A DNA stretch of 64,000 nt from assembly GCA_028280815.1 (NCBI GenBank), contig JANQLC010000030.1, positions 1 to 64,000 of the forward strand, read 5' to 3'. The notes below the pieces were generated by a model. The model saw only the letters and a program-made list of their open reading frames with translations. It ran no database searches and was not told the origin of the DNA. Position numbers and translations under genes: made by a program. The first letter of the stretch is position 1. Every line of letters begins with the position of its first letter. The stretch is from Flavobacteriales bacterium. Its GTDB lineage: Bacteria > Bacteroidota > Bacteroidia > Flavobacteriales > JANQLC01. This document shows, one piece after another, positions 27,751-62,371 of the stretch.

Positions 27751-28152
27751 ATGAAAACAACGTTTGAAACAAAGCGCGTTTTATCCACTTTCAACACGCA
27801 TGCTGACGGATGGGATCAAAAGAGCGCTTATATTGCCGAAAAAGTAGGAGAGAGCCGCAGGCTTTTCCGATTGCTAGACAGACTGGTGAAAGATCGGGAT
27901 CGCATTTTGGATATGGGTTGCGGCACGGGAAAGCTGGGTACTCATCTGAAACAAATCGCAGCCAATACGAGATTGGTATCCGCTGACACATTTCGATTGG
28001 GATGCTCAGAAGGGCACAGCAGAAGGGGCATGCTCAGAAAGCTATTCAAATTGGAAGCTATAGTGCTTTGTTGCAATGCGATGCAAATGGACGGGAACCG
28101 TTGTGAATGGCTACCGGAATCTTATATTTGCTTAACAGTCATAGTTGATTGA
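27751..28152 (+). pseudogene. Truncated class I SAM-dependent methyltransferase whose C-terminus is encoded by a CRISPR-repeat-like sequence
   Basis: ILDMGCGTGKLGTHL motif I; homology-like sequence fades after about residue 80; last ~16 residues come from the 28100-28145 repeat-like element. Confidence 0.6.
28100..28145 (+). repeat. Solitary CRISPR-repeat-like 46-mer, gap-free alignment to the array repeat
   Basis: gttgtgaatggctaccggaatcttatatttgcttaacagtcatagt; 39/46 identical to array repeat by eye. Confidence 0.85.
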
Positions 28153-28239: not shown

Positions 28240-29250
28240 ATGAAGCGATCTGCACTTATTCCGATCCTTTTTTTAGCGGCCTTATCCTGTAATCGTAAAG
28301 AGTCGAATCCAAGTCAAAATACGATGAAACTACACCACGGAAAGAACGAGGTTTATTACAAAAATCATGGCGAGAGAATTGCTGCGTTTTTATTTATTCC
28401 TGAAGACTTCAAGGAAGGTGAAAAGAGATCAGCAATCGTCATCAATCCACCTGCGACAGGTGTAAAAGAGCAAACTACGGGCGTTTACGCAGAGCGGCTG
28501 AGCAAAAAGGGCTTTATCACTTTGGCGTTTGACCCTAGGGGGTTTGGAGAGAGTGAGGGGCATCCACAATTACAAAACCCATACAAAATAGCCGACGATA
28601 TAAAAACATCGGTGAGTTACTTGAGAGCGCTAAAAGAAGTAGATAAAGACAATATATTCAGCCTGGGCATTTGTGCAGGATCCGGTTTTGCGGCATTTGC
28701 AACGGCTTTCGACTCCAGAATCAAGGCATTAGCCCTTGTCAGTCCGTTTTTAACGACATCTGAGGAATATCTCAAAATCTTTGGTGGTTCGGCCGGACTA
28801 CGTCAAAAGCTCTTTCCCGCTGCTGCTGCTGTCGAAGATTCGTACCATCAGAAAGGTGAAGACAAGACTGATAGGATAGTTCCCATAACCGAGCGGGAAA
28901 TAGCAACGGCAAGGCCCATCCCGCTGGGCATGAGAGATTACTATTTAGCAGGCAAACCCGGAGACGTCCCAAATTGGAAGAATGAGCTCAGTCTGTTATC
29001 ATTGGGGCCGACATTGAGCTTCTCGATATACAATTTCACGAATTTTTTCGACTCCGTCCCAGTTTATATGGTGTACGGAGAACTCGCCGCTTCGGCTGCC
29101 GGTGCACAACGCTTTTACAATGCGATAAAGGGGCCGAAAGAAAAACTCGTCATTAAGGGTGCCAGACATTTTGATTTGTATTGGAAGCCCGAATGCGTAA
29201 ATCCCGCCGTAGAAGGCATATCGAGATTTCTAAAGAACCAAGTGAGCTGA
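28240..29250 (+). CDS. Alpha/beta hydrolase, putative lipoprotein
   Basis: Lipobox AALSCN; LAFDPRGFGES, GICAGSGFAAF nucleophile elbow, GARHFDLYWKPE. Confidence 0.8.
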   Translation: MKRSALIPILFLAALSCNRKESNPSQNTMKLHHGKNEVYYKNHGERIAAFLFIPEDFKEGEKRSAIVINPPATGVKEQTTGVYAERLSKKGFITLAFDPRGFGESEGHPQLQNPYKIADDIKTSVSYLRALKEVDKDNIFSLGICAGSGFAAFATAFDSRIKALALVSPFLTTSEEYLKIFGGSAGLRQKLFPAAAAVEDSYHQKGEDKTDRIVPITEREIATARPIPLGMRDYYLAGKPGDVPNWKNELSLLSLGPTLSFSIYNFTNFFDSVPVYMVYGELAASAAGAQRFYNAIKGPKEKLVIKGARHFDLYWKPECVNPAVEGISRFLKNQVS

Positions 29251-58457: not shown

Positions 58458-58579
58458 GTTGTAATTGGCCAACGAAATCTGATTTTTGATGAGCAGTCAC
58501 AGGTTTACCCCCTTCTTTAGTGAACTTAGCTGTGTTGTGAATTGCTACTGGAATCTTACATTTGCCTAGCAGTTACAGG
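58458..58579 (+). repeat. Relic CRISPR unit: degenerate 46-nt repeat, 30-nt spacer-length gap, second 46-nt repeat
   Basis: 58458-58503 gttgtaattggccaacgaaatctgatttttgatgagcagtcacagg; 30 nt; 58534-58579 gttgtgaattgctactggaatcttacatttgcctagcagttacagg. Confidence 0.75.
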
Positions 58580-58784
58580 GCAAGTGCTATGAAGCTACCG
58601 ATGGCTTCAAGAAACTGAAAAAGGCGTCCGAATACTCCGATTGCGAAGTTTATGATGTGATCCTCATTAAGTCGAATTCGAGTGCGTTGGTATAGAAGAT
58701 CAAAAATGATGAAACGTTCGGGGGTCGAATCCCTCTCTTCTCGCTGAATTTTATTCGATCGCCAAACGCATAAGCAGCTAAATT

Positions 58785-59318
58785 ATGAACAAATCGCAGC
58801 TGATACAATCCAAGATATATAATGTAAACGGGCATAAGGTGTTGTTAGACTTTGATTTATCGGCATTGTACGAGGTGGAGAATCGAATTTTAAAACAAGC
58901 GGTAAGACGAAACCTTAAGCGTTTTCCGCCTGATTTTATGTTTCAACTCTCTAAGGATGAGTGGAAGGAGCTTATCACAAATTGTGACAACCTTCCCGAT
59001 AAAGTCAAATACAGTCCCGTTGCGCCGTTTGCCTTTACAGAGCAAGGCGTAGCAATGCTATCTTCTGTGCTCAACAGCGACAAAGCAATCGAGGTCAATA
59101 TAGTCATTATGAGAGCTTTTGTAACGCTTCGCCGACACCTTACGGACTATGCTGGTCTCAAAGAGCGTGTAGCGCGGCTGGAAAAAGAAATGAACCTGAA
59201 GTTTAAAGGTCTATACCAAGCGTTAAACCACTTGCTTAAAAAAGAGAAAACAATTGTGGATCGACAAAAAAGAGCAAGAATAGGTTATAAAACCGGTAAT
59301 AAGAGAAAACAAGTCTAG
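58785..59318 (+). CDS. ORF6N domain-containing protein
   Basis: IYNVNGHKVLLDFDLSALYEVENRILKQAVRRNLKRFPPDFMFQLSKDEW, FAFTEQGVAMLSSVLNSDKAIEVNIVIMRAFV. Confidence 0.92.
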   Translation: MNKSQLIQSKIYNVNGHKVLLDFDLSALYEVENRILKQAVRRNLKRFPPDFMFQLSKDEWKELITNCDNLPDKVKYSPVAPFAFTEQGVAMLSSVLNSDKAIEVNIVIMRAFVTLRRHLTDYAGLKERVARLEKEMNLKFKGLYQALNHLLKKEKTIVDRQKRARIGYKTGNKRKQV

Positions 59319-59354
59319 TAACCGAATCAGAAGGCTTCTATATATGCGCCTAGT

Positions 59355-59449
59355 GTTGTGAATGGCTACCGGAAATGCGCAGCATTCGTGAATACCGCTA
59401 AGATCAGATAACGAATGAACAACCTTGACTTTTGCTTAGCGGTCACAGG
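59355..59449 (+). repeat. Long-form CRISPR-repeat-like element immediately outside the array
   Basis: gttgtgaatggctaccggaaatgcgcagcattcgtgaataccgctaagatcagataacgaatgaacaaccttgacttttgcttagcggtcacagg. Confidence 0.75.
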
Positions 59450-59478: not shown

Positions 59479-60586
59479 GTTGTGAATTGCTACCGGAATC
59501 TTACATTTGTCTAGCGGTCACAGGCTAGCGGTGGTAAGCTTGTAGAAGGATGCGGTTGTGAATTGCTACCGGAATCTTACATTTGTCTAGCAGTCACAGG
59601 CAACTGGCCGAGGACAATTACGAAAAAGCAGTTGTGAATTGCTACCGGAATCTTACATTTGTCTAGCAGTCACAGGCGCCATCCTCATCCCATCCGTATG
59701 GCCACTGTTGTGAATTGCTACCGGAATCTTACATTTGTCTAGCAGTCACAGGCTGCGACGAGCAGATACTTATTTCTGTTGTGTTGTGAATTGCTACCGG
59801 AATCTTACATTTGTCTAGCAGTCACAGGCATCACTACACAGCGGAAGAAGAAGCGGCGGGTTGTGAATTGCTAACGGAATCTTACATTTGTCTAGCAGTC
59901 ACAGGACTACTGGGCTAACTGGTGCCGGGTATATCGTTGTGAATTGCTAACGGAATCTTACATTTGTCTAGCAGTCACAGGTAAGCCCTAGGCAGAATGT
60001 TTAACTCGGGGGTTGTGAATTGCTACCGGAATCTTACATTTGTCTAGCAGTCACAGGCTTTGTAAAAATCTTTTTTGAATAAATCTAGTTGTGAATTGCT
60101 ACCGGAATCTTACATTTGTCTAGCAGTCACAGGGCTACAATAAATAATTGGGAGTCTCTTCAGTTGTGAATTGCTACCGGAATCTTACATTTGTCTAGCA
60201 GTCACAGGTAAGAAAAGATTTGCAGTATGTTAGTGGTGTTGTGAATTGCTACCGGAATCTTACATTTGTCTAGCAGTCACAGGACAAGCAATAAAAGAAG
60301 GTGAGTCCAAAAGTTGTGAATTGCTACCGGAATCTTACATTTGTCTAGCAGTCACAGGATGAAGCAGAAGCGCCTTGCTCTAGTCTCTGTTGTGAATTGC
60401 TACCGGAATCTTACATTTGTCTAGCAGTCACAGGTACCTCTTGGTGCTCATCTGTGCCGCATTTGTTGTGAATTGCTACCGGAATCTTACATTTGTCTAG
60501 CAGTCACAGGGTGTACAAGGGATGAGAAAACAAGCCCCCGGTTGTGAATTGCTACCGGAATCTTACATTTGTCTAGCAGTCACAGG
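59479..60586 (+). CRISPR. CRISPR array: 15 repeats of 46 bp, 14 spacers of 29-31 nt
   Basis: Repeat GTTGTGAATTGCTACCGGAATCTTACATTTGTCTAGCAGTCACAGG; first repeat has CTAGCGG, repeats 6 and 7 have CTAACGG; strand assigned from embedded promoter orientation (inference). Confidence 0.97.
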
Positions 60587-60655
60587 ATAACTCGCATAAC
60601 AAGCTGTTATCCTGTCTGTTAGGCCTTTAGTTAGAATTAAAAAACAAGACACTTT

Positions 60656-61888
<1,233 letters not shown>

Positions 61889-61892
<4 letters not shown>

Positions 61893-62371
61893 GAGAACAC
61901 TTTAAAACCATTCCGATACAGATCGTTGGCATCATCTGCTCTCCCTTCATCTTTAATCATTTCGATAAGCCTATTGGAAGGAATGACCCCGGGCGCAAAA
62001 ACTGCGATCGCCAAAGCATTAAAGCAGGCTGCCGTTGGATCAATTTGGGAGACAAAGGCTTTTAAATCGACACCTGAGTCTAACAAGTTAGACAAGACAA
62101 CATTTTCATAGGCGGGTAAATAACCCAGCTTCTCACCCTGAAAGTAAACGGCCACTGCGAAGGCATCGTATTTATTTTGCTTCTCCCTGACCAACTGTAA
62201 AACCGCTCCCGTGCTAATATGGCTTTTCAATCTGTCAAATCGATAATACCTCAACCCCGCAACGTAGTTATCATAGATTTTAATCAGCCGATCCGCCAGC
62301 AGTGAGTTGACCGGCAGCCTGAAGCCGCCGATACTTATGCTGAGTGCTTGGATAAAATCTTTGCGTTTCAC
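61889..62371 (-). CDS. HIRAN-domain protein encoded between cas9 and cas1
   Basis: YVAGLRYYRFDRLKSHISTGAVLQLVREKQNKYDAFAVAVYFQGEKLGYLPAYENVVLSNLLDSGVDLKAFV matches the HIRAN pattern; abuts cas9 stop and shares ATGA with cas1. Confidence 0.8.

What the first reader, a model, noticed from the sequence alone, without database searches (positions are those of the whole stretch)
59479..60586. Each CRISPR repeat carries an embedded Bacteroidetes promoter (TTG-N19-TACATTTG)
Seen: within every full repeat, TTG at positions 2-4 is followed after 19 nt by TACATTTG at positions 24-31, matching the Bacteroidetes -33/-7 consensus (TTTG/TAnnTTTG). The same -7 box precedes several ordinary genes here (2996 TACATTTG, 40609 TATATTTG, 43628 TATCTTTG, 53951 TATCTTTG, 20885 minus TATATTTG). 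Established: Neisseria II-C arrays use repeat-embedded promoters that bypass RNase III. From memory, the Bacteroides fragilis II-C repeat (GTTGTGATTTGCTTTCAAATTAGTATCTTTG...) has TATCTTTG at the same offset; this should be verified. Inference: each crRNA starts from its own repeat, transcribed on the + strand, opposite to the cas genes.
Basis: partly seen in the sequence, partly recalled or inferred. Interest (0 to 1): 0.72.

Follow-up and report, generated by a model that had tools for sequence, protein, structure and literature searches.

The report
Promoter box inside CRISPR-Cas9 repeats
Each repeat of this bacterial CRISPR-Cas9 array contains the "start transcription here" signal typical of its phylum, and almost all long Cas9-type repeats sampled across that phylum contain it at the same place, so each guide RNA is probably switched on from its own repeat; similar in-repeat promoters are known in other bacteria, but this phylum-specific version had not been described in the open papers searched.

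Summary
All 15 repeats at 59479-60586 carry TTG-N19-TACATTTG (17 window hits against 0.9 expected; one is an isolated repeat at 58534, one a solo repeat at 28100). In a survey of Bacteroidota Cas9 loci, 54 of 61 distinct 44-49-nt repeats (16 of 18 clusters) hold TAnnTTTG with at most one mismatch at position 22-28. Shuffled repeats give about 10 of 61 and 3 of 18. The motif is absent there from five non-Bacteroidota II-C arrays and never exact in 11 Bacteroidota type-I repeats. It lies at or beyond the anti-repeat pairing segment. The tracrRNA genes of the same loci use the same box. Anti-repeat, leader position and a downstream terminator-like hairpin put transcription on the + strand, opposite to cas. 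Best reading: a sigma-ABfr-type -7 box inside each repeat drives its own crRNA. The TTG "-33" is a generic repeat start. The box predicts a start at repeat position ~36, about 11 nt before the spacer, unlike C. jejuni (5 nt into the spacer), so 5' trimming is probably still needed and RNase III bypass is unsupported. Repeat promoters were already proposed for two Flavobacterium species from TTG alone. No RNA data exist for this organism.

The parts
59479..60586 (+). Main CRISPR array: 15 repeats of 46 nt (GTTGTGAATTGCTACCGGAATCTTACATTTGTCTAGCAGTCACAGG), spacers about 30 nt; box TACATTTG at repeat positions 24-31
59502..59509 (+). -7 box of the first full repeat; the others start at 59578, 59654, 59730, 59806, 59883, 59959, 60035, 60111, 60186, 60261, 60336, 60412, 60488, 60564
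59514..59514 (+). Predicted crRNA start in the first repeat (repeat position 36, 12 nt after the box start); inferred, not measured
   Evidence: box at -12 to -5 in F. psychrophilum (PMC9723704)
59355..59449 (+). Two degenerate repeats (about 59355-59400 and 59404-59449) at the 5', oldest end of the array
58459..58579 (+). Remnant of two older repeats (58459-58504 degenerate, 58534-58579 near-intact with box TACATTTG), cut off from the main array by the ORF6N-gene stretch
28100..28145 (+). Solo diverged repeat; its box has become TATATTTG (change at a degenerate n position)
60587..60655 (+). Leader-like flank at the 3' end of the array transcript, almost identical to the flank of array 2 (C15:74463 side)
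60665..60679 (+). Terminator-like hairpin facing array transcripts (CTCCAGCTGCTGGGG, then CGGTTTTT), inside the 3' end of cas2
60656..61078 (-). cas2
   Evidence: Pfam PF09827
60996..61892 (-). cas1
   Evidence: Pfam PF01867
61889..62371 (-). HIRAN-domain ORF between cas9 and cas1
   Evidence: Pfam PF08797
62372..64000 (-). cas9, C-terminal part; the gene continues past the window to about C15:66652. The tracrRNA lies divergently upstream at about C15:66703-66793 (anti-repeat 66714-66728, box TACCTTTG 16 nt upstream of it)

Best explanation
This is a type II-C CRISPR-Cas9 locus of a Bacteroidota bacterium. Each 46-nt repeat has three parts. Positions 1 to about 15-24 pair with the tracrRNA anti-repeat. 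A -7 promoter box for the Bacteroidota primary sigma factor lies at 24-31. A 3' segment ends at the spacer. RNA polymerase probably starts at about position 36 of each repeat on the + strand and reads through about 11 nt of repeat, the spacer and the next repeat. tracrRNA pairing then defines the 3' end of the crRNA, and the 5' end is probably trimmed. New spacers enter at the 3', cas2-side leader, so a new spacer brings its own promoter with the duplicated repeat. Shown by sequence: box, position, strand, anti-repeat, leader placement, phylum-wide conservation. Inferred: sigma binding, start site, processing, acquisition end.
For:: 15 of 15 repeats, 17 hits against 0.87 expected; at most one mismatch at position 22-28 in 54 of 61 distinct long repeats (16 of 18 clusters; shuffles 10.3 and 3.2, 0 of 1000 shuffles reach the cluster value), exact in 17 of 61 against 0.8, and never exact on the other strand; anti-repeats pair with repeat positions 1 to about 15-28, so the box is at or beyond their end; in the window system 1-15; tracrRNA genes of the same loci have the box within 60 nt upstream of the anti-repeat, exact in 34 of 70 and at most one mismatch in 61 of 70 (no shuffle control); own tracrRNA TACCTTTG; three Bacteroidota plasmid arrays have it at position 24 (two exact, one with one mismatch); five non-Bacteroidota II-C arrays lack it there and two of them end in TACAAT, a sigma-70-like -10; 0 of 11 type-I repeats exact; leader conserved between two arrays, on the 3' side of + transcription; terminator-like hairpin on + just after the array. 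(PMC8092290): a few RNA-seq reads in F. columnare II-C run toward the leader.
Against: No RNA data for any box-bearing long-repeat locus were found. Many lineages have only 5 of 6 matches (TATCTTCG, TATTTTTA, TAATTTTA), and their host upstream regions do not show a matching variant dialect. One large 36-nt repeat group, ending GATATT, has no box. Within-array variants are too few to show special constraint on the box. Some repeats have a hairpin around the box, leaving another role possible.
Confidence: 0.76

Rival explanations
1. The mid-repeat motif is conserved for another reason, such as a recognition element for Cas1-Cas2 integration or an RNA hairpin used in processing, and resembles the -7 box without being used as one.
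For: Long repeats have imperfect terminal inverted repeats, and stems around the box are somewhat longer than in shuffled segments (5.07 against 4.26), mostly in repeats with GTATC-TTTG-GATAC.
Against: The TA..TT core is kept while flanks that would form the stem vary. The motif equals the phylum's promoter box, is strand-specific when exact, is shared with the tracrRNA upstream regions and is missing at this place from II-C repeats of other phyla.
Confidence: 0.13
2. The box is real but minor: crRNAs mainly come from a longer precursor started upstream of the array, and repeat promoters only add to it.
For: Boxes in many species are one mismatch from consensus; the predicted start leaves 11 nt of repeat and a full spacer to be trimmed, as for a precursor.
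Against: The conserved leader is at the downstream end of the array, and the upstream end holds degenerate repeats with no sigma-70-like site beyond chance, so no dedicated array promoter is evident there.
Confidence: 0.09
3. The match is inheritance plus A+T-rich composition: related repeats share a T-rich middle by descent, with no function.
For: Many sampled repeats come from a few families and share 75% or more identity.
Against: 16 of 18 repeat clusters keep the box while flanks and lengths change; shuffles with the same dinucleotides give 3.2 of 18.
Confidence: 0.02

Closest known systems
C. jejuni II-C array (PMC3656092)
   Same: cas9-cas1-cas2, tracrRNA, a promoter element in every repeat, transcription of each spacer from the repeat before it
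   Different: C. jejuni: extended -10 (GGTAAAAT) at the 3' end of the repeat, start 5 nt inside the spacer. Here: TAnnTTTG in mid-repeat of a 46-nt repeat, predicted start about 11 nt before the spacer.
N. meningitidis II-C array (Zhang et al. 2013, as cited in PMC5006608 and PMC10309648)
   Same: Promoter embedded in each repeat, no leader promoter
   Different: There RNase III is dispensable. Here the box position does not by itself give short mature crRNAs, and processing was not testable.
F. columnare and F. psychrophilum II-C arrays (PMC8092290, PMC10309648)
   Same: Same phylum; a repeat-encoded promoter was proposed, with transcription toward the leader
   Different: Those papers rest on a TTG 33-35 bp before the spacer, in 36-nt repeats for F. 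columnare; in the text read they do not report a TAnnTTTG box in the repeat. Here the -7 box is the evidence and TTG carries little weight.
Riemerella anatipestifer CRISPR1, 47-nt repeats (PMC5006608)
   Same: Long-repeat II-C; its anti-repeat TGAAAGCAATTCACAA implies a repeat starting TTGTGAATTGCTTTCA
   Different: The authors found no promoter in the repeats and favoured a leader promoter on the cas2 side, which is the downstream end in the present reading.

Membership tests
Type II-C CRISPR-Cas | Cas9 effector | tested here: met
   TIGR01865, 469 bits, over the cut-off; RuvC_III
Type II-C CRISPR-Cas | Only cas9, cas1, cas2 (no csn2, no cas4) | tested here: met
   cas1 and cas2 next to cas9; the one extra ORF between cas9 and cas1 is a HIRAN-domain protein, not csn2 or cas4. 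Genes upstream of cas9 outside the window were not scanned.
Type II-C CRISPR-Cas | tracrRNA with anti-repeat | tested here: met
   Anti-repeat at C15:66714-66728 upstream of cas9, strong fold (z -4.8) with a terminator-like 3' end
Type II-C CRISPR-Cas | Spacer gain at the 3' end of the transcribed array | tested here: inconclusive
   Degenerate repeats at the 5' end, conserved leader at the 3' end; acquisition itself not testable
Repeat-embedded promoter (N. meningitidis / C. jejuni kind) | Promoter element of the host's housekeeping sigma factor in every repeat | tested here: met
   Exact TAnnTTTG in all 15 repeats and TAnnTTTG enriched upstream of genes in the window, 10 sense against 2 antisense
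Repeat-embedded promoter (N. meningitidis / C. jejuni kind) | Primary transcripts start at each repeat | not testable with these tools
   Needs 5'-end RNA-seq
Repeat-embedded promoter (C. jejuni kind) | Start site inside the spacer, giving a ready-made 5' end | tested here: inconclusive
   Box position and PMC9723704 predict a start at repeat position ~36 of 46, outside the spacer; this is a prediction against the feature, not a measurement
Bacteroidota sigma-ABfr promoter | TAnnTTTG at -7 | tested here: met
   Sequence match only:
Bacteroidota sigma-ABfr promoter | TTTG or TTG at about -33 | tested here: inconclusive
   TTG is there, but GTTG also begins II-C repeats of other phyla, so it does not discriminate

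The most novel reading that the evidence does not exclude
The unusually long 46-48-nt repeats of Bacteroidota II-C systems are long because they fit a phylum-specific -7 box between the tracrRNA-pairing segment and the 3' segment. This moves the start site into the repeat, so primary crRNAs carry a repeat-derived 5' tag and need a trimming step that C. jejuni lacks. In-repeat promoters would then have changed their sequence dialect and position with the host's sigma factor.
Probability: 0.35. Interest if true: 0.65.

Novelty: new variant of a known kind. Interest (0 to 1): 0.5.

Why it matters
How Bacteroidota II-C arrays are transcribed is unsettled: one paper found no repeat promoter, two proposed one from TTG alone. 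A phylum-wide -7 box gives each array a testable start-site prediction, fixes the crRNA strand for designing guides for these Cas9s, and suggests that promoters inside CRISPR repeats follow the host's sigma factor.

Tried and rejected
Variant-dialect test: repeats with TTTA, TTCG or TTAG boxes do not come from loci whose gene-upstream regions favour that variant, so these are read as near-consensus boxes. Within-array polymorphism as a constraint test: too few variants among 1586 repeats to tell box from flanks. TTG as -33 evidence: dropped as generic. The 36-nt class as a whole: box at 22-28 in only 7 of 24 distinct repeats (5 of 12 clusters, 22 of 1000 shuffles as high), so the claim is limited to the long class. 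Rfam found no tracrRNA family in L018. The literature search covered open-licence papers only.

Full report
Observation. The window holds a 15-repeat array at 59479-60586 with 46-nt repeats and about 30-nt spacers. Every repeat has TTG at positions 2-4, 19 nt, then TACATTTG at 24-31. The exact pattern TTG-N19-TAnnTTTG occurs 17 times in the window against 0.87 expected. The two hits outside the main array are an isolated repeat at 58534 and a solo diverged repeat at 28100. A second five-repeat array with the same repeat lies beyond the window at C15:74463-74811.

The locus. Downstream of the array on the minus strand are cas2, cas1, a HIRAN-domain ORF and cas9. Divergent from cas9, just past the window, is a tracrRNA: box TACCTTTG, 16 nt, anti-repeat GTAGCAATTCACAAT (C15:66714-66728), then a stable fold ending in a terminator-like hairpin and T-run. 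The flank after the last repeat is almost identical between the two arrays, marking the leader at the 3' end of transcription, while degenerate repeats sit at the 5' end. This is the II-C polarity described in PMC12080349. A terminator-like hairpin on the + strand follows the array.

Survey. Cas9 loci were taken from two samples of Bacteroidota genomes, about 400 from the phylum and 400 from the window's order, plus genome contigs. Arrays were found by script and oriented by their 5' end. Among 61 distinct repeats of 44-49 nt, 54 have TAnnTTTG with at most one mismatch starting at position 22-28; dinucleotide shuffles give 10.3 (maximum 20). By cluster at 75% identity, 16 of 18 against 3.2 (0 of 1000 shuffles as high). 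Exact boxes: 17 of 61 against 0.8, and none on the other strand. Common forms are TATCTTTG, TATCTTCG, TATTTTTA and TAATTTTA. Among 36-nt repeats only 7 of 24 have it; one large group ending GATATT has none.

Why a promoter. First, the box is at or beyond the end of the anti-repeat pairing, which in most loci covers positions 1 to about 15-28. Second, the tracrRNA genes of the same loci carry the same box within 60 nt upstream of the anti-repeat, exact in 34 of 70 and within one mismatch in 61 of 70 (best match in 60 nt, no shuffle control). Third, five II-C arrays from other phyla lack it at this place, and two of them (Azospirillum, Ilyobacter) end in TACAAT instead, while three Bacteroidota plasmid arrays have it at position 24, Phocaeicola massiliensis and Prevotella nigrescens exactly and Persicobacter with one mismatch. 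Fourth, 11 type-I repeats of Bacteroidota have no exact box and 4 of 11 a one-mismatch box on either strand, against 18 and 59 of 61 long Cas9 repeats by the same measure. Fifth, TAnnTTTG is enriched upstream of genes in this window, 10 sense to 2 antisense.

GTTG opens most II-C repeats seen here, including some from other phyla, so TTG is poor evidence for a -33 box; PMC7366714 also notes that -33 could not be identified in F. johnsoniae. In F. psychrophilum the -7 box spans -12 to -5 (PMC9723704). Applied here it predicts a start at repeat position 36, leaving 11 nt of repeat before the spacer. In C. jejuni the start is 5 nt inside the spacer and RNase III still makes the 3' end (PMC3656092). 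So the crRNA 5' end would not be ready-made here, and the RNase III bypass has no support from sequence.

Prior work. PMC8092290 (F. columnare) proposed repeat-encoded promoters from TTG 33 bp before the spacer, with eight RNA-seq reads in the array. PMC10309648 repeated this for F. psychrophilum and reported array transcription. PMC5006608 (Riemerella, 47-nt repeats) found no repeat promoter. No paper in the open library searched reports the -7 box inside the repeats; subscription papers were not searched.

Limits. No transcription data were available. Genomes in the survey are unnamed and several families dominate. The hairpin and integration rivals are less likely but not excluded. The dialect test was negative and the within-array constraint test uninformative.

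Verdict. It is a new variant of the known repeat-embedded promoter, with a different box and a different predicted start.

Noticed in passing
28100-28145: A solo diverged copy of the CRISPR repeat about 95 bp upstream of an alpha/beta-hydrolase-like ORF (28240-29250); its box became TATATTTG, a change at a degenerate position only. It may be an array relic or a displaced promoter.
   Followed up: partly
61889-62371 (minus): A HIRAN-domain ORF sits between cas9 and cas1. Homologues lie directly after cas9 in L147 and L150 and about 0.5 kb after it in L101, so it may be a recurring II-C accessory gene in Bacteroidota.
   Followed up: partly
58459-59354: A two-repeat array remnant is separated from the main array by a stretch with an ORF6N-domain gene (58785-59318), suggesting an insertion into an older, longer array.
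   Followed up: partly
L018:18330-18812 (C15:about 74330-74811): The leader of array 2 is followed by a copy of the 3' end of cas2, so leader plus cas2 tail were probably duplicated together when the second array arose.
   Followed up: partly
L049, L050, L052, L053, L054, L057 (36-nt repeats): Six distinct 36-nt Bacteroidota repeats end in TACATT or TAGATT (TAnnTT), as if a partial -7 box sat at the repeat-spacer junction as in C. jejuni; the start would then fall inside the spacer.
   Followed up: no
G000:C20:8306-9343: The same small genome (1.59 Mb) also has a cas3 helicase hit, so a second, type-I CRISPR system is probably present.
   Followed up: no
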